A stretch of DNA of 64,000 nucleotides from Methylomonas fluvii (GTDB lineage Bacteria > Pseudomonadota > Gammaproteobacteria > Methylococcales > Methylomonadaceae): the NCBI RefSeq assembly GCF_014850975.1, contig NZ_JACXST010000002.1, positions 124,001-188,000 on the forward strand, written 5' to 3'. Each line of letters starts with the position of its first letter. The first letter of the stretch is position 1. The position numbers were made by a program, and so were the translations under genes. Below are positions 1 through 15,339 of this stretch, piece after piece. The notes under the pieces are model-generated. The model saw only the letters and a program-made list of their open reading frames with translations, did not search any database and had not been told where the DNA came from.

Positions 1-869
1 TTTAAGTTATAACCCAAGTGCGAATAGGTGTACTTATGGTCGTAACCGGCCGGCAAATCGCCTAACTGCCAACCAAATCTCTTTTTACAGGTGTTATCCA
101 CACCGGGAGCGCAATAACAATCTCTTCCCCAATCCCGAAACGACTCGATGATAGTTTTCAGGCGACGACTACTGGTAAATACTGCACCGCCCTCGCCCAT
201 CGTAATGTGGTGAGCCGGGTAGAAACTAAGCGTACCAATATCCCCAAAAGTGCCGACATTGCGGCCCTTGTAGGTTGTGCCTAAGGCATCGCAGCAATCT
301 TCTATCAGCCAAAGATTGTATCTTTTTGCAATTTCGACCACTTGATCCAGGTCAAACGGGTTGCCCAGCGTGTGGGCGATCATGATTGCCTTGGTTTTAG
401 GCGTAATAGCCGCTTCGATTTTACTGGGATCGATGTTATAGGTTGGTATTTCCACATCGACAAATACCGGGACAAGGTCGTAAAGCAGAATGGGATTCAC
501 TGTTGTGGGAAAACCAGCCGCTACGGAAATGACTTCGTCGCCTTTTTGCAAGGCCCGGTCTCCCAGTTTTTCGGATGTCAAACAGGCAAAAGCCAGCAGA
601 TTCGCAGAGGAACCGGAATTGACCGTCAACGCGCTGCTAACGCCAATAAACTCGGCCAATTGCTTTTCAAACTGGTCGTTAAATCGTCCGGTAGTCAACC
701 AACCGTCTAGCGACGCTTCGACCATATAACTAAGTTCTTTGGCCCCGAGAATTTTACCCGACGGCGGCACTACGGACTGTTCCGGAACGAAAGCTTTTTC
801 GGCATAACGTTCGGCGGCGTATTGTTCAACCAAATCCAAAATCTGCGCTTTTAATGTATTTTCTGTCAC
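1..869 (-). CDS. rfbH: CDP-4-keto-6-deoxy-D-glucose 3-dehydrase (E1), partial
   Basis: Leftward gene cut by the window edge; 289 N-terminal residues are visible. E1 is a PMP- and [2Fe-2S]-dependent enzyme that removes the C3 hydroxyl of CDP-4-keto-6-deoxyglucose, the committed step to 3,6-dideoxyhexoses of LPS. The sequence has the diagnostic histidine in place of the usual PLP lysine (PAHH, His220/221) and all four iron-sulphur cysteines with the family's C-x57-C-x1-C-x7-C spacing (Cys193, 251, 253, 261). The start is GTG at 869, because the nearby upstream TTG is out of frame. It lies 25 bp after rfbG in the same operon. The identification is very secure; only the C-terminus is missing. Confidence 0.95.
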
Positions 870-894: not shown

Positions 895-1977
895 TTAATG
901 TTGATCAGCTGTCAAAAACTGCTCTAACTGCTCCGCGCAGACTTGCTGCATATCCTTGCCTTGTTGATAGGCCAGGTTCCAGTCGACAATCATCGCCAAC
1001 GCTTGGGCCAGAGTCCAACGCGGCACCCAACCCAGAAGGGTCTTGGCTTTGGAGCAATCAAGCTTCAAATAGTGCGCTTCATGCGGCTGCTCACTAGCAT
1101 CGATTTGCCAACTTGCGCCATTGCCCCATAAATCCGCCAGTTTTTCCAATATCCACGATACGGGTTGCGCATCGGCTTCGCTGGGCCCGAAATTCCAACC
1201 CTCCGCGTATCGACTACCTTTTTTGTATAGTTGTTCGGCTAACAGGACATAACCGGTCACCGGCTCCAGTACATGCTGCCAAGGCCTGATGGCTGTCGGG
1301 TTACGAATCGTCACAGCCTCCCCTGCCATGAACGCTTTCATGATGTCTGGAATTAAGCGATCCTGAGCCCAATCCCCGCCGCCAATCACATTGCCGGCAC
1401 GCACCGACGCCACCGCCACCCCGTGCTCAGCGTAGCGTTCGCTGGGAAAAAACGAATTACGATAGCTGGCAGTTACCAGTTCCGAACAGCCTTTGCTATT
1501 GCTGTAAGGATCGAAGCCACCCATCGGCTCATTTTCCCGGTAGCCCCACAACCACTCCTTGTTTTCATAGCATTTGTCGCTGGTGACTATCACAACTGAC
1601 TTTACCGACGCGGTGTGCCTGACAGCCTCCAGTAAATTAACCGTACCCATCACATTGGTGGCGTAGGTTTCCACCGGCTGTTGATAGGAATAACGAACAA
1701 GCGGTTGCGCGGCCAAATGAAACACAAACTCAGGTTGAAAGCTTTGCATTTCCGCCATCACGCTGGTTAAATCCCGAATATCGCCTTCAACGTGCTGCAG
1801 TACCGAAGCAATACCGGCCACTTGGAACAAACTGGGTGTGGTCGGCGCCGGTAACGCATACCCTTTGATCTCCGCACCTAACCGATGCAGATATAACGCC
1901 AACCAACCGCCTTTAAATCCCGTATGCCCGGTTATAAAAACCCGTTTGCCTCGCCAAAAATCGCTATGTTCTACCAT
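895..1977 (-). CDS. rfbG: CDP-glucose 4,6-dehydratase
   Basis: Converts CDP-D-glucose to CDP-4-keto-6-deoxy-D-glucose, feeding RfbH. It is an extended SDR: the N-terminal NAD-binding glycine motif GHTGFKG follows about ten residues after the start, and the catalytic YSNSK (Y-x3-K) sits mid-protein. The 360-residue length fits the family. I chose ATG at 1977, which overlaps the rfbF stop (ATGGTAG) by 7 bp and suggests translational coupling; an upstream in-frame start at 2007 would add ten unconserved residues. It sits between rfbF and rfbH, the classical order for CDP-3,6-dideoxyhexose synthesis. Confidence 0.94.
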
Positions 1978-2738
1978 ATCTTCCACGGTGCTTTTTGCTG
2001 TTGCCAAAGCTGTTCCAAATGCTGCTTATCTCTTAATGTATCCATGGGTTGCCAGAAGCCTTTGTGGAAATAAGCGTGCAGCTGATTGCTGTTCGCCAGA
2101 CGCTCCATCGGTTCTTTTTCCCATAGCGTTTCGTCGCTATCGATTAAATCGAACACTGCCGACGACAACACAAAAAAACCGCCGTTGATCCAGGCGCCGT
2201 CGCCCTGCGGTTTCTCCTGAAAACTTTTGATGCGGCTCCCCACCAATTCCAAGGCGCCAAACCGGCCGGGCGGTTGCACGGCGGTCACAGTTGCGGCGTT
2301 ATTGTGGGAATGATGAAAATCGATCAGCGCATTAATATCGACATCGCCGACCCCATCTCCGTAAGTAAAACAGAATGTTTCATCGCCGATATAATCGCGA
2401 ACTCTTTTTAACCGGCCACCAGTCATCGTTAATTCACCGGTATCTACTAAAGTGACTTTCCATGGCTCTGCATATTTTTGATGCACCTGCATCTCGTTAT
2501 GCTCCATATCGAAGGTCACATCCGACATATGTAGAAAGTAATTAGCAAAATACTCCTTAATAATATAGCCTTTATATCCCAAACATATTATAAATTCGTT
2601 AATTCCATAATGAGAATATAACTTCATTATATGCCATAAAATAGGCCTACCACCTATTTCAATCATCGGTTTAGGCTTCACCGAGGTTTCTTCATTAATA
2701 CGAGTGCCCAACCCACCCGCAAGAATAACCAACTTCAT
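1971..2738 (-). CDS. rfbF: Glucose-1-phosphate cytidylyltransferase
   Basis: Makes CDP-glucose from glucose-1-phosphate and CTP, the first step of the CDP-3,6-dideoxyhexose branch. The nucleotidyltransferase signature LAGGLGTR starts at residue 6 and is followed by the sugar-phosphate loop [16 protein letters not shown]. At 255 residues it matches the family. Transcribed leftward 32 bp after the preceding SDR gene and overlapping rfbG by 7 bp. Together with rfbG and rfbH it gives CDP-4-keto-3,6-dideoxyglucose; the final reductase is probably one of the SDR genes upstream in the operon. Confidence 0.94.
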
Positions 2739-2770: not shown

Positions 2771-3772
2771 CTATCCACTACATTTGTTCAAATTACGGAT
2801 ATACTCGGCAGTTTCTAAAATTTGTCGATCTAGGCCGGTTACTGGAAATTCGAACCCTTTTATAATATCTTTAATAGGCTGTTCATTTCCCAAATAGCTA
2901 TCAGATTCCCCATGTATCATATTCGGACGCTCAACTGTTAAGTCAGTAGCATCCAGTAGCTTGCATACTTTTTCAGCCAACTCACCCACTTCCACCGTTT
3001 CATCACCTACGGTGTCGAAACAGACAATTTTTCCGAAACGTTCCGAGAACATCATGCGAATACAGATCAGCAGTAAATCCAGTATGTAAATATAAGACCG
3101 AAACACGGGCTTATTTGCCCGAATTAGCACATTTTCTCGGGCAATGACATTCGCAATAATCGAGGACAAGGCATAAGCATTTAGCTTATTGATATATGGC
3201 CCGCTTAGATTAAATATTCTCGGGATAAGGAGTTTTATATCGGACTTACTGCATATCTCTTGAAAGAGCAACTCATCTTCATATTTTAATCTACCGTACA
3301 GATTTGCAGACTTATCTCTATTGCTATCGTTTAAATAATCGTAGACTGCTCCGGACGACGACAATAGCACAGCTTTTACCTGTGATTGTTTCAATACCTG
3401 TATCACCAAGCCCTGAATATCTCTATTCAAGCGAATATATTCATCGTCTGTATATCCGCCAACCTTATCCTTGGTTAAAAACGCAAAGTGAAACAAATAG
3501 AGATTGTGTTGCGTATGCCGATGGGTAATTTCCGCCAAAGGTCTAACGGATACTGTACGGCCATCCGCCAATACTATCTGCTGTTCACGCGATCCATAGG
3601 CCGATACCCGCTGGTTAAATTCGCCGCCGTACAAAGCGGAAAACAACTCCAGAGTTGCCCGGCCTAACCAGCCGCTGGCGCCCGTCACAGCAATATGAGC
3701 CTGCTTACTCAGCAGACGATCCACAATAAATCGATAATCTGCGCCAAACGCTTTTTCGAAATTAAAAGCCAT
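2771..3772 (-). CDS. NAD-dependent epimerase/dehydratase (extended SDR)
   Basis: A 333-residue extended SDR. The Rossmann motif GASGWLG is near residue 31 and the catalytic Y-x3-K is YGRLK, preceded by an SSSGAVYD serine region. It overlaps the upstream cyclase gene by 1 bp and precedes rfbF by 32 bp, so it is in the polysaccharide operon. Its substrate cannot be read from sequence. It could be the C4 reductase finishing a CDP-3,6-dideoxyhexose (the abequose/paratose-synthase role) or act on the product of the neighbouring cyclase and aldolase. AT-rich compared with the rfbBDAC genes, which suggests separate acquisition of this cassette. Confidence 0.8.
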
Positions 3773-4848
3773 TATTTGTAGCTTTGACTAATAACTGAGC
3801 TAATCGCAGACTTCAAATTGACTATATTTGTCTCGGTTTTATCGATAAATAATCGCTCTAATGCTCCGGAATCATTCACACTGATAATAATAAAATGACT
3901 GGCGGAATGCTTTTTATCGGATATAAAACACTCAAAGACTTTTTCCACATCAATTCGCTGGATAATTTCTTTCAGCATCGGAATTTCATCCAATAAGCCA
4001 ATGACATAATCTTTCAACTGTTGAGTATCCGCCGGAATTTGCTTCAGACCACCGCTCACTTGGGCATAGTTAATGGCAATCAGCATGCCTAATCCAACCG
4101 CTATGCCATGGCTTACTTCAAAATTGGAAGCACCTTCCAAAGCGTGCCCGAAGGTATGACCAAAATTCAACAACAAACGCTCGGCTTTATCAAATTCATC
4201 AATTTCGATAAACCATTTCTTTGCTTTTAAACTTAATTCAATTACATCCGCATACCCTTCTACATTCATATCCATTTGCGGATTTAACTGCATATACTCA
4301 GAAAAACACGAACTTCCTTTGGCATAGCAAATCTTCACGGCCTCGCACAATCCGGCGATTTTCTGTTCCGAGTTGAGGGTTTTTACTAAATTGGGATCAA
4401 TTATAATGGTCTCCGGGGGATGAAAATTTCCAACCAGATTTTTATAACGTCCAACATTGATAGATGACTTACCCCCAATACAAGAATCCACCATACCCAA
4501 TAGAGTGGTGGGAATATAATCCCATTTGATACCGCGCATATAAATAGAAGCACAAAAGGTAGCTATATCCTGCAGACTCCCACCACCAACAGCCGTCAAC
4601 TTAGCTTGCCTTGTTAAAGCTAAATCTCGCATCTTTATAATTATATCGGGAACGGATTTCAAACTTTTGGTTTCTTCATTCGCCGGTACAGCAATAACCT
4701 TGGCATTCCCGGAAAAAGCCGTTTCAAAAAAGTTATCGCATAACACGGCACTATTCTCATTTTGCCGCTGTACTTCGACAAAAGCACCGCTTTCTATTAC
4801 CACGCGATAATTTGCAATACTGGATTGAATATCAAACGATACGGACAT
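3772..4848 (-). CDS. 3-dehydroquinate-synthase-like sugar-phosphate cyclase
   Basis: 358 residues with the full DHQS fold signature: glycine-rich NAD site GGGSLQDIATF, PTTLLGMVDSCIGGK, KNLVGNFHPP, LCEAVK, and the metal-binding LLNFGHTFGHALE and HGIAVG histidines. The family cyclises phosphorylated keto sugars (DHQS in the shikimate pathway; inosose and valiolone synthases in secondary metabolism). The HGIAVG motif differs from the HGEAV of housekeeping AroB, and the gene lies in an O-antigen operon between two SDR genes and an aldolase, so a specialised cyclase is more likely than shikimate synthesis. It overlaps the upstream SDR by 17 bp. Substrate unknown. Confidence 0.82.
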   Translation of the reverse strand: MSVSFDIQSSIANYRVVIESGAFVEVQRQNENSAVLCDNFFETAFSGNAKVIAVPANEETKSLKSVPDIIIKMRDLALTRQAKLTAVGGGSLQDIATFCASIYMRGIKWDYIPTTLLGMVDSCIGGKSSINVGRYKNLVGNFHPPETIIIDPNLVKTLNSEQKIAGLCEAVKICYAKGSSCFSEYMQLNPQMDMNVEGYADVIELSLKAKKWFIEIDEFDKAERLLLNFGHTFGHALEGASNFEVSHGIAVGLGMLIAINYAQVSGGLKQIPADTQQLKDYVIGLLDEIPMLKEIIQRIDVEKVFECFISDKKHSASHFIIISVNDSGALERLFIDKTETNIVNLKSAISSVISQSYK

Positions 4849-5524
4849 GACTAAATCCTAAGTCTGCACTAATAAATTGACCTGTTATACCGGTATTTTC
4901 CGGAGAACACAGAAAATAAACCATATTAGCTACATCCTCCAACGTCGCTAGTCGGTTAAACTTCGTCGCATCGATTATCTTTTTTAGCTGTTCCGGTGCA
5001 AGATTTTGGTGAGTCATTGGCGTATCCAATGCACCAGGCAGAACCGCATTAATTAAATAGCCGTCACGGGCAAGATCGGTTGCCGCGGAAAGCACTAATC
5101 CATTCAATGCGGATTTAGTCATACAATACGATAACTTGTCCTGTCTGGCGATATTTTGCCATATTGAACTAATCACCGCTAAACGCGCTTTTTCAGCCAA
5201 CAAGCCTTCATTTAATAAAATATTTAATGACTTAACAATAAACAAGCAATTGGCTTTATATAACTCAATATTTTTATCTATATCAAATTTATAAATGCTA
5301 TCGTTACAATTCATCCCTTGCGCCCAACATACCGCATTGAATTGGCCTGCTGCTTTAAGCGCGGATAAATTCAAATTGTCATCGAATGGGTCAAATAAAA
5401 TATGCTCAGGAAGCGCGCTTTGCTTTCTGGTCGCTATAACGACCTGCCATCCCTTGGTATCGAATAATTGGCAAACATGTGCACCTATTGTACCGGTACC
5501 GCCGAAGACCAGAATTTTTTGCAT
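4832..5524 (-). CDS. Short-chain dehydrogenase/reductase
   Basis: Classical SDR of about 230 residues. The N-terminal motif is ILVFGGTGTIGAH and the catalytic YCMTK (Y-x3-K) lies mid-protein after VISSI. Start chosen at ATG 5524 because the glycine motif begins only a few residues later; a TTG four codons upstream is possible. It starts 13 bp after the aldolase and overlaps the cyclase gene by 17 bp, indicating coupled expression. It probably reduces or oxidises a keto group on an intermediate made by the adjacent aldolase or cyclase, but the substrate is unknown. Confidence 0.8.
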   Translation of the reverse strand: MQKILVFGGTGTIGAHVCQLFDTKGWQVVIATRKQSALPEHILFDPFDDNLNLSALKAAGQFNAVCWAQGMNCNDSIYKFDIDKNIELYKANCLFIVKSLNILLNEGLLAEKARLAVISSIWQNIARQDKLSYCMTKSALNGLVLSAATDLARDGYLINAVLPGALDTPMTHQNLAPEQLKKIIDATKFNRLATLEDVANMVYFLCSPENTGITGQFISADLGFSHVRIV

Positions 5525-5537
5525 TGCTTCGACCAAA

Positions 5538-6341
5538 TTAATTGCTATCTCTTAATACGTTCCAACGCCCCTCAAGCATCGCTATTCGAGACAGATCTTC
5601 CTTGGCAATAATATCGTAATAATCACGTTTATTCTGTAACCAAAGTAATTCAAAATGCACGGCGTTTAACAAGCCTTTTTCAATATCTGGCTTGTCTAGC
5701 GAATGGCCGGAAAATATGACTTTTCGAGTCTCAAATCGGGTAAGGTGGACCTGGTTAATTTCTTTCAATGCCGGCAACGCATCAATGGAAACACCACCGC
5801 CCACCACAAAGTCCAAACCTTTTTCTTTACACTCTTTGGCAGTGGCAATACAACACTCCGTTACTTGCGGCTGATTAATGGCATCTCTCGAATAGCCACG
5901 TGACAAGGAAAAATCCACACGGCCAAACACCATGCCATCGACGCCGTTATCTTGCCTCGCTTGATCGGCCAGGCTTTGCACCACTTGAAACGCTTGTTCG
6001 GTTTCAATATTGAATAAAAAATCAGTATCTTGCTGCTCGTCTTCCGTGAATACTTTATTCTTCGCGTCTATATATTTAGACAGCGCGTAAGTGCTTTCAA
6101 TCATCGGCGCGATGATATGATCCACACCAATTAATTTACTCTCCAATAAATCGCGCATTGCTTCGCAGCCACCTATCTTCAAACCTACTTTCAGATCCGC
6201 CCTGCGCACAATTTCGATCAATCTCAGCAATTCGTCTGTTCTGGTTCCTTCCGCTTCAAACTCGGCTTTAATGCCTTCGTATCCATACTCCTGCTTTCCC
6301 TTCTTTAGAAGGTCGAGCATTGAGCGTTCTCTTTTATTCAT
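5538..6341 (-). CDS. HpcH/HpaI-type aldolase (citrate-lyase beta-like fold)
   Basis: 267 residues starting at ATG 6341, chosen for the strong ribosome site (gaggaag) 7 bp upstream. It resembles the HpcH/HpaI aldolase superfamily of metal-dependent class II pyruvate aldolases: [30 protein letters not shown] with the metal-ligand glutamate, and [18 protein letters not shown] with the metal-ligand aspartate. Family members form or cleave carbon-carbon bonds using pyruvate enolate. As first gene of the four-gene cassette after rfbC, it may extend a sugar chain before cyclisation; that role is inference. The exact superfamily branch is less certain than the fold. Confidence 0.75.
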
Positions 6342-14385: not shown

Positions 14386-14511
14386 TTATAGTTGGGGGTC
14401 TGTATATCATGTACTTTTGTGAGATATACAGATCTACTTAATTTCTTGTTAGCCACCACTGGCACAAACATGGCCGTCGATGAAACAAGTCAAATTAAAG
14501 CGGGAACATAT

Positions 14512-15339
14512 ATGTATTACCACGTAATAGTTGAAACCACGGACAAGAACAAAAAAGGTGACTATGAACGCTCCTATGAATTGGACTGTAAGAATCTTGA
14601 CGAGATCGTTGATCTGATTATTCGGCCTTATTCAAAAAATGAACAGATTTACATTAACGGCATGTACATCGATCGGCAAAAGGTTCGGTTACTAAAGGTC
14701 AAGTCCTCCGAAAAGCCGCTAGCAGAGTTACGCGATATTGCCCAGAGCACCGTAGGTCGCGGAGTGCTTTTTGTGTATACGGAAATATCTGTTGTAAATA
14801 GCGATAAATACGTAACCGACATCACCAAGGATACACTCAAATCTGTAGGCGAAATTCGGAAATCAACCATCACCGGTGCAACATCAGTCCCGCCAGATAA
14901 AAATAAGGTTTTCATTGTTCATGGCAGAGATGAGCATGCAAAAACAGAGGCGGCACGCTTTGTTGAAAAACTAGGGTTCAGTGCAATTATTCTCCATGAG
15001 CAGGCCAATTCTGGAAAAACAATAATTGAGAAAATAGAGGCACATACAAATGTCGGCTTTGCCATTGTGTTGTATACGCCATGCGACGTTGGGTGCATCG
15101 TTGGCGAGAAGATCACCAAGCCACGAGCCAGGCAAAACGTTGTATTCGAACATGGTTACCTAATCGGGAAATTAGGACGTCATAACGTTTGCGCCTTAGT
15201 AAAAGGTGATGTTGAAATCCCAAACGATATTAGCGGCGTAGTCTATGTTCCGCTTGATAGCCATGGCGCATGGCACTTGGCAGTAGCTAAAGAAATGCGA
15301 AACTCTGGCTATGCCGTTGATATGAACAAAGTAATCTAG
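14512..15339 (+). CDS. TIR-like nucleotide-binding domain protein
   Basis: 275 residues from the ATG at 14512 (MYYHVIVE), which fits the family start I recall; ATG 14470 is an alternative and neither has a strong ribosome site. The N-terminal ~130 residues are an uncharacterised domain. The C-terminal half is a TIR-like domain of the CAP12/Pycsar-effector type: VFIVHGRDEHAKTEAARF, LHEQANSGKTIIEKIE, FAIVLYTPCDVG, then ARQNVVFEHGYLIGKLGR with the probable catalytic glutamate. The usual TPDDVG is TPCDVG here. Such domains often cleave NAD+ as abortive-infection effectors. No cyclase or other partner is adjacent, so it would be stand-alone. Codon use is AT-richer than htpG, consistent with transfer. 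Defence role is inference. Confidence 0.8.
   Translation: MYYHVIVETTDKNKKGDYERSYELDCKNLDEIVDLIIRPYSKNEQIYINGMYIDRQKVRLLKVKSSEKPLAELRDIAQSTVGRGVLFVYTEISVVNSDKYVTDITKDTLKSVGEIRKSTITGATSVPPDKNKVFIVHGRDEHAKTEAARFVEKLGFSAIILHEQANSGKTIIEKIEAHTNVGFAIVLYTPCDVGCIVGEKITKPRARQNVVFEHGYLIGKLGRHNVCALVKGDVEIPNDISGVVYVPLDSHGAWHLAVAKEMRNSGYAVDMNKVI

What the first reader, a model, noticed from the sequence alone, without database searches (positions are those of the whole stretch)
2771..6341. Cyclase-aldolase-SDR cassette inside an O-antigen operon: possible carbocyclic or branched sugar pathway
Seen: an HpcH/HpaI-like aldolase, an SDR, a DHQS-like cyclase with intact metal and NAD motifs (HGIAVG instead of HGEAV), and an extended SDR lie, tightly coupled, between the dTDP-rhamnose genes and rfbFGH. 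Known: DHQS relatives make carbocycles; rare bacterial O-antigens contain carbocyclic monosaccharides (bradyrhizose, caryose). Inference: the cassette could extend a sugar by pyruvate addition and close a carbocyclic ring, giving an unusual LPS residue. An alternative is an unrelated cofactor or an aminocyclitol.
Basis: partly seen in the sequence, partly recalled or inferred. Interest (0 to 1): 0.82.

Follow-up and report, generated by a model that had tools for sequence, protein, structure and literature searches.

The report
Branched-sugar cassette shared with phages
A methane-eating bacterium carries a gene set, also found on uncultivated phage contigs, that most likely builds an unusual side-branched sugar for its surface, with a relative of a well-known ring-forming enzyme doing an unexpected job in it.

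Summary
In detail: between rmlBDAC and rfbFGH of a Methylomonas O-antigen locus lie an aldolase-like gene (ALD), an SDR, a dehydroquinate-synthase-like gene (CYC) and an extended SDR. The host has a separate true aroB. ALD, SDR, CYC and a ThDP enzyme occur together in 11 of 11 bacterial loci with ALD at 59% identity or more, and on viral contigs, some bearing a T4-type capsid gene. There ALD can be replaced by a second aldolase or a NeuB-like synthase, families that make 2-keto acids. CYC+SDR behaves as an optional pair on that core. Best reading: the cassette makes the branch donor of a caryophyllose-type C4-branched 3,6-dideoxyhexose, CYC+SDR turning the phosphate end into CHOH-CH3. No chemistry was shown.

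The parts
5538..6341 (-). ALD: divergent HpcH/HpaI-like pyruvate-barrel protein; proposed 3-deoxy-2-ulosonate-phosphate synthase
4832..5536 (-). SDR: short-chain reductase, proposed to reduce the ketone left by CYC
   Evidence: adh_short_C2; PDB SDRs; next to CYC in the bacterial CYC loci listed; SDR present in 45 of 46 CYC+ and 3 of 34 CYC- viral ThDP loci
3772..4848 (-). CYC: dehydroquinate-synthase-fold enzyme, own subfamily; proposed phosphate-eliminating step on the branch donor
   Evidence: TIGR04425 272.6 (cut-off 400), TIGR01357 245.6 (cut-off 305); clade 100/100, sister of two TIGR04425 members; 13 DHQS positions kept in 120 of 120 listed best homologues
2771..3772 (-). extended SDR, proposed reductase or epimerase of the branched nucleotide sugar
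   Evidence: Epimerase family; present in 9 of 9 bacterial loci that have the window-type ThDP enzyme and rfbH; PDB GalE-1 only weakly, E 2.9e-5
1971..2738 (-). rfbF, glucose-1-phosphate cytidylyltransferase
   Evidence: TIGR02623 473.5 > 300
895..2007 (-). rfbG, CDP-glucose 4,6-dehydratase
   Evidence: TIGR02622 504.9 > 278
3..869 (-). rfbH (part in the window; continues to about -444); the ThDP enzyme of the pathway lies beyond it at about -460 to -2241 (L003:17759-19540, minus strand)
   Evidence: RfbH NF011936 523.6 > 423, motif [14 protein letters not shown]; ThDP enzyme best PDB match 8rph, named JanthE in PMC12188165 (passage)

Best explanation
The cassette makes the branch donor for a YerE/ErwE-like ThDP enzyme, giving a caryophyllose-type C4-branched 3,6-dideoxyhexose for the O-antigen. 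Proposed steps: (1) RfbF, RfbG and RfbH make CDP-4-keto-3,6-dideoxyglucose. (2) ALD joins pyruvate to a tetrose phosphate (erythrose 4-phosphate fits best), giving a 3-deoxy-2-heptulosonate 7-phosphate that differs from ordinary DAHP. (3) CYC uses DHQS chemistry (oxidise C5, eliminate the C7 phosphate, reduce C5) but stops open-chain, leaving CH3-C(=O)-. (4) SDR reduces that ketone, giving 3,7-dideoxy-2-heptulosonate. (5) The ThDP enzyme decarboxylates it onto C4 of the CDP sugar, adding a six-carbon branch. (6) The extended SDR reduces the branch ketone. Shown: gene identities, conservation, co-occurrence and residue patterns. Inferred: every reaction of ALD, CYC, SDR, extSDR and of this ThDP enzyme, their substrates, their order and the product.
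For: ThDP enzyme after rfbH, best PDB match JanthE; related enzymes add 2-keto-acid branches to CDP-4-keto-3,6-dideoxyglucose, and ErwE prefers 4-hydroxy-2-oxo acids (PMC12247030, section 2.1 read). In 398 same-phylum genomes all 7 with ALD (E 1e-40) are among the 10 with the ThDP enzyme (E 1e-95) (Fisher 4e-13). Three donor-synthase families stand beside the ThDP enzyme: ALD, ALD2 or NeuB in 46 of 47 viral loci with CYC and ThDP. CYC-less viral ThDP loci keep a donor synthase (29 of 34) and the epimerase EPI2 (28 of 34) but mostly lack SDR (3 of 34 have it). CYC keeps K250 and R264, which I recall as the carboxylate site, in 120 of 120 and 65 of 65 relatives, as a free-acid substrate would need; the two sedoheptulose cyclases compared differ at both and the one DOIS at R264. 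Caryophyllose is 3,6-dideoxy-4-C-(D-altro-1,3,4,5-tetrahydroxyhexyl)-D-xylo-hexose (PMC5706390 passage): its branch is what a decarboxylated 3,7-dideoxyheptulosonate would give on the RfbFGH base.
Against: No DHQS-fold enzyme that stops before ring closure is known to me; in DHQS the aldol step is thought (recalled) to follow almost by itself. I could not test whether any known caryophyllose producer has ALD or CYC, because no such genome was reachable by name. CYC also occurs without a ThDP gene in 18 of 65 viral loci, beside CMP-transferase-like and SIS genes, so its substrate need not be the same everywhere. Seven of the 11 bacterial loci came from CYC searches or are the window itself, so CYC there is by construction; the 4 found through ALD have CYC 4 of 4. 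In the stereochemistry only branch carbon 4' is an independent match to erythrose 4-phosphate, a one-in-two chance. Novosphingobium L241 has rfbF-rfbG-ALD (55%) with no CYC, SDR or ThDP gene found within 9 kb, and G914 and G1119 have a lone 46% ALD. The structure search cannot separate aldolases from pyruvate kinases (Z within 1). EPI2 and dehydratase labels are best hits at 24-37% identity within broad families.
Confidence: 0.45

Rival explanations
1. Carbocyclic branch. ALD makes the phosphorylated 3-deoxy-2-keto acid, the ThDP enzyme adds it to C4 of the CDP sugar, and CYC then closes the branch by phosphate elimination and attack on the branch ketone; SDR reduces the ring ketone. The product is a carbocycle-bearing branched sugar. 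This is the nearest to the first reader's idea.
For: All 13 DHQS positions are kept in 120 of 120 relatives and, apart from K197, in 65 of 65 viral CYC; ring closure is the normal outcome of that chemistry. CYC+SDR is an optional pair on a donor-synthase + ThDP core, as a tailoring step would be.
Against: The retained K250/R264 pattern suggests a free carboxylate, which the ThDP step removes. EPI2 is kept when CYC is present (45 of 46 viral ThDP loci), although a branch ketone for it to reduce would be gone. I know of no sugar that matches.
Confidence: 0.3
2. Two independent products: ALD, CYC and SDR make a free dehydroquinate/quinate-like carbocyclic acid, while the ThDP enzyme uses pyruvate to make a yersiniose-like sugar.
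For: K250/R264 kept; an HpcH/HpaI-like aldolase, SDR and CYC occur without a ThDP gene in view in L024; a KDO8P-synthase-like gene accompanies CYC in L112.
Against: No gene seen that could activate such an acid: CMP-transferase-like genes in 0 of 47 ThDP+ viral CYC loci. Donor synthase and ThDP enzyme stay together where CYC is absent.
Confidence: 0.12
3. The CYC gene is a redundant or imported aroB paralogue and the cassette has no joint function.
For: DHQS fold and residues.
Against: Separate clade, true aroB elsewhere in the genome, repeated co-occurrence of the set in bacteria and viral contigs.
Confidence: 0.03

Closest known systems
YerE/ErwE/JanthE-type C4-branched sugar pathways (yersiniose, erwiniose, caryophyllose, ropiose, aurantose)
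   Same: rfbFGH supply of CDP-4-keto-3,6-dideoxyglucose and a ThDP enzyme of the YerE-like decarboxylase type (PMC12247030 section 2.1)
   Different: ALD, a DHQS-fold CYC and an SDR are added; the section and passages read do not mention such genes. Krug 2024, Steitz 2022 and Lanza 2024 are not held and might.
3-Dehydroquinate synthase AroB (TIGR01357)
   Same: fold and catalytic residues
   Different: below the cut-off (245.6 < 305), separate clade, HG[I/V] instead of HGE in 117 of 120, extra host copy of aroB
TIGR04425, AroB-related putative sugar phosphate phospholyase (cyclizing)
   Same: sister clade, joined at 98/98; its two members here also stand beside an aldolase and an SDR (L024, L025)
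   Different: the five window-type members scored give 266-296 against a cut-off of 400, while L024 and L025 pass
HpcH/HpaI class II pyruvate aldolases
   Different: about 15% identity, no significant PDB relative by sequence, Pfam score just under the cut-off

Membership tests
AroB (TIGR01357) | score over the curated cut-off | tested here: not met
   245.6 < 305
AroB (TIGR01357) | falls in the AroB clade | tested here: not met
   44-row tree, window-type clade 100/100 outside the five AroB rows
AroB (TIGR01357) | catalytic residues | tested here: met
   13 of 13 positions (numbering recalled from A. nidulans DHQS)
TIGR04425 | score over the curated cut-off | tested here: not met
   272.6 < 400; sister clade
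Sedoheptulose-7-phosphate cyclases / DOIS | changed residues at K250, R264, N268 or H275 | tested here: not met
   window keeps K, R, N, H; two annotated SH7P cyclases differ at all four, one annotated DOIS at R264 and N268
HpcH/HpaI aldolase (PF03328) | Pfam gathering score | tested here: inconclusive
   288-aa ORF 23.1 < 25; the 267-aa entry P0121, identical to the window protein, is listed with PF03328
HpcH/HpaI aldolase (PF03328) | fold | tested here: met
HpcH/HpaI aldolase (PF03328) | pyruvate aldolase activity | not testable with these tools
   needs an enzyme assay
YerE-like ThDP enzyme | nearest solved structure is YerE-like; not an acetolactate synthase equivalog | tested here: met
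   8rph 291 bits, named JanthE in PMC12188165; AHAS NF006524 269.6 < 738
YerE-like ThDP enzyme | carboligation to CDP-4-keto-3,6-dideoxyglucose | not testable with these tools
   needs an enzyme assay
Caryophyllose pathway | CDP-4-keto-3,6-dideoxyglucose supply | tested here: met
   RfbF, RfbG, RfbH over their cut-offs
Caryophyllose pathway | same ALD/SDR/CYC genes in a proven producer | not tested
   no named producer genome was reachable

The most novel reading that the evidence does not exclude
Bacteria and T4-type phages share a modular pathway in which a dehydroquinate-synthase-fold enzyme closes a carbocycle on the branch of a CDP-linked sugar, making a class of carbocycle-branched sugars that I have not found described.
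Probability: 0.28. Interest if true: 0.85.

Novelty: new variant of a known kind. Interest (0 to 1): 0.68.

Why it matters
Where the long, deoxy-ended branch of sugars such as caryophyllose comes from is not explained in the passages I read. This cassette offers a concrete, testable route and a new use of the dehydroquinate-synthase fold, either open-chain phosphate elimination or carbocycle formation on a sugar branch. Viral contigs carry the same kit with three exchangeable donor synthases; one (L126) carries the CDP-glucose genes as well. That suggests phages can install unusual branched sugars, perhaps on the host surface or the virion. Database entries that name CYC relatives mostly call them '3-dehydroquinate synthase', so the pathway is easily overlooked.

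Tried and rejected
Sedoheptulose-type cyclase (EEVS/DOIS-like): rejected on residue pattern. Housekeeping AroB: rejected. Plasmid relatives of the window CYC at E 1e-50: none. Named phages: no ALD match at E 1e-10; the phage-contig CYC and ThDP queries gave 14 and 41 records, all listed rows (14 and 40) under 40% identity and, where annotated, named aroB, 3-dehydroquinate synthase or acetolactate synthase. Link to bradyrhizose: PMC4743980 (sections 15 and 19 read) reports an 11-gene cluster with a 4,6-dehydratase, but no Bradyrhizobium genome could be reached to compare. Caryose and bradyrhizose as products: both appear, from names I recall, to carry oxygen where DHQS chemistry would leave CH2, so I did not pursue them. 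No held paper joining these genes turned up in searches. PMC4403928, PMC13354803 and PMC4703794 (term searches, passages only) gave nothing on aldolases; the word dehydroquinate was looked for only in PMC13354803, PMC5706390, PMC4743980 and PMC12188165, with no occurrence. I spent the single genome-contig scan on one protein, which limited named relatives to four loci. CMP-transferase and SIS references for one search came mostly from the ThDP-less loci themselves, so 17 of 18 there is partly by construction; the 0 of 47 is not.
Full report
WHAT IS THERE. On the minus strand, in transcription order: rmlB, rmlD, rmlA, rmlC, ALD (6341-5538), SDR (5536-4832), CYC (4848-3772), extended SDR (3772-2771), rfbF, rfbG, rfbH. 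rfbH leaves the window; reading on into the host genome gives a 593-residue ThDP enzyme, a GT2 and further surface-polysaccharide genes. The host is taken to be a Methylomonas: the nearest CYC is 96% identical in Methylomonas sp. 11b, and Methylomonas sp. LW13 is syntenic. Of the 12 same-genus genomes listed, 3 including this one carry CYC, as expected of a variable O-antigen locus. GC of ALD, SDR, CYC and extSDR is 43.7, 40.3, 39.4 and 42.2% against 51.3% for the window.

CYC IS NOT HOUSEKEEPING AROB. It scores 245.6 on TIGR01357 (cut-off 305) and 272.6 on TIGR04425 (cut-off 400). The host's own aroB scores 389.8 on another contig. In a 44-row tree the 28 window-type rows form one clade (100/100), sister to two TIGR04425 members and apart from the five AroB rows (the program flags long branches and uneven composition). 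The 13 DHQS active-site positions, numbered from recall, are kept in 120 of 120 listed best homologues, a similarity-ranked and not independent sample; the E of HGE is I or V in 117 of 120. Two annotated sedoheptulose-7-phosphate cyclases and one annotated DOIS differ at several of these positions. In viral relatives the HGE position is E again in 16 of 47, so that residue alone decides nothing.

THE PARTNER OUTSIDE THE WINDOW. The ThDP enzyme's best PDB match is 8rph, identified as JanthE in PMC12188165 (passage). The review PMC12247030 (section 2.1 read in full) says YerE adds a pyruvate-derived branch to CDP-4-keto-3,6-dideoxyglucose, ErwE prefers 4-hydroxy-2-oxo acids and makes erwiniose, and related enzymes are known or assumed to act in caryophyllose, ropiose and aurantose formation. 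RfbF, RfbG and RfbH make exactly that acceptor.

BACTERIAL NEIGHBOURHOODS. In 11 of 11 loci with ALD at 59% identity or more, SDR and CYC are present, with a window-type ThDP enzyme in 9 and a second type (TPP2) in 2. Four of the eleven are Methylomonas, so about eight lineages. Seven of the eleven are the window or were found through CYC; the four found through ALD (G814, G853, G663, G1171) all have CYC. G405, almost the same as WSC-7, was left out of the table. A CYC search also found G166, which has no ALD but an HpcH/HpaI-like gene, SDR and a TIGR04425-type cyclase, and no ThDP gene in view. The extended SDR goes with rfbH and the window-type ThDP enzyme (9 of 9). In a draw of 398 same-phylum genomes all 7 ALD-positive genomes (E 1e-40) are among the 10 ThDP-positive ones (E 1e-95) (Fisher 4e-13). 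Three Magnetococcales loci (named through proteins whose contig lengths agree) pair a second aldolase (ALD2, about 40%) with TPP2, a NagD-like phosphatase and radical-SAM genes and have no CYC in view. Two others (G519, G685) have a NeuB-family gene (PF03102) directly before TPP2 instead of an aldolase. Exceptions: G622 has TPP2 and neither synthase in view; G914 and G1119 have a lone 46% ALD; Novosphingobium L241 has rfbF-rfbG-ALD (55%) without the rest within 9 kb. The set is sparse: ALD in 5 of 385 genomes of G853's class and 1 of 60 of G814's family.

VIRAL CONTIGS. A scan of IMG/VR with ALD gave 17 contigs, some near-duplicates; all 17 carry CYC, SDR, TPP2-like, RfbH-like and dehydratase-like genes. 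A scan with CYC gave 65 loci, 16 of them with ALD; the 17th ALD contig was not recovered by that scan. 47 of the 65 have the ThDP gene and 46 of those have ALD, ALD2 or NeuB; the exception is a 6-kb fragment. Merged at 90% CYC identity, 34 of 34 ThDP-positive groups have a donor synthase and an SDR. The other 18 loci mostly have CMP-transferase-like and SIS-like genes (17 of 18 each, with references taken mostly from those loci; 0 of 47 in the ThDP set). A scan with TPP2 kept the best 80 of 198 loci: 46 with CYC and 34 without. A donor synthase is present in 43 of 46 and 29 of 34, EPI2 in 45 of 46 and 28 of 34, SDR in 45 of 46 but only 3 of 34. Merged at 90% ThDP identity: SDR in 28 of 29 CYC+ and 2 of 27 CYC- groups, donor synthase in 29 of 29 and 23 of 27. 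So CYC+SDR looks like an optional pair on a core of dehydratase, RfbH, donor synthase, ThDP enzyme and epimerase. The loci are related to one another, so p-values are only indicative, and the gene labels are best hits to a small reference set at E 1e-8. A T4-type major capsid gene lies on 6 of the 17 ALD contigs and on 5 of 42 further CYC contigs tested, 42 of 49; nine of those eleven carry the ThDP gene. A terminase match was found in 5 of 17. For the other contigs, and for those of the ThDP scan, viral origin rests on IMG/VR's classification. L126 has rfbF-rfbG-EPI2-TPP2-ALD2-SDR-CYC-rfbH in one run, with RfbF, RfbG and RfbH over their cut-offs; no capsid gene was found on its 47-kb contig. 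No record of the named phage collection matches ALD at E 1e-10.

MECHANISM. The donor-synthase families ALD, ALD2 and NeuB have one thing in common: their known relatives make 2-keto acids with a CH2 next to the keto group (established knowledge; not assayed here). In CYC-less loci that acid should go straight to the ThDP enzyme. Where CYC is added, either it acts before the ThDP step without destroying the 2-keto acid, or it acts after. Caryophyllose is 3,6-dideoxy-4-C-(D-altro-1,3,4,5-tetrahydroxyhexyl)-D-xylo-hexose (PMC5706390, passage), with a hydroxylated C6 chain on C4 (PMC7821131, passage). That branch, CHOH-CH2-CHOH-CHOH-CHOH-CH3, is what decarboxylative transfer of a 3,7-dideoxy-2-heptulosonate would give, and that acid is what DHQS redox/elimination chemistry on a 3-deoxy-2-heptulosonate 7-phosphate, followed by one reduction, would give if the ring were not closed. 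By my own reading of the D-altro prefix, carbons 4' and 5' have the configuration of D-erythrose and 3' is opposite to DAHP, which would explain a dedicated aldolase; only 4' is an independent check. Against it, DHQS chemistry normally ends in a ring. The ring-closing version, after ThDP transfer, is the main rival and would give a new carbocycle-branched sugar. Loci without rfbH in view (G663, G440, both at contig ends) could make a 3-hydroxy version such as ropiose; this is speculation.

LIMITS. No reaction was tested; no producer of a known branched sugar could be compared; Krug 2024, Steitz 2022 and Lanza 2024 (seen only in a reference list) are not held and may describe part of this. Absence from print is claimed only for the searches named under Tried and rejected.

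Noticed in passing
L126:1066-9317: Viral contig (IMG/VR) with rfbF-rfbG-epimerase-ThDP-ALD2-SDR-CYC-rfbH in one run, i.e. the CDP-glucose branch as well.
   Followed up: partly
L111-L124, L127, L150, L155, L156: Second viral context of CYC: CMP-transferase-like and SIS-domain genes in 17 of these 18 ThDP-less loci (not L124), KDO8P-synthase-like gene in 2; in L112, L114, L123 and L127 a DegT-like aminotransferase gene, not an SDR, lies directly before CYC.
   Followed up: partly
L046:9210-10004, L047:9433-10227: A lone ALD relative (46%) directly after genes that look like waaA and lpxK (read from sequence, no family call made) in two genomes of one genus.
   Followed up: no
L241:7037-9807: Novosphingobium humi plasmid with rfbF-rfbG-ALD (55%) but no CYC, SDR or ThDP gene found within 9 kb.
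   Followed up: no
L061:7637-9157, L063:7605-9182: NeuB-family synthase with a C-terminal cupin domain immediately before a YerE-like ThDP gene.
   Followed up: partly
L024: TIGR04425-type cyclase beside an HpcH/HpaI-like gene (by eye), SDR, 2-hydroxyacid dehydrogenase and CMP-transferase-family gene, without a ThDP gene in view.
   Followed up: no
L242:9001-9774: Ilyobacter polytropus plasmid: an ALD relative (34%) in what looks like a hydroxy-acid catabolic cluster (aconitase, 2-hydroxyacid dehydrogenase), so not every relative serves surface sugars.
   Followed up: no
L007:4717-5746: In Methylomonas sp. WSC-7 two extra ORFs, one nucleotidyltransferase-like by eye, interrupt rmlA-rmlC.
   Followed up: no
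window 14392-15339 +: ORF that looks by eye like a TIR-type nucleotide-binding protein next to an htpG-like gene; no family search was run.
   Followed up: no
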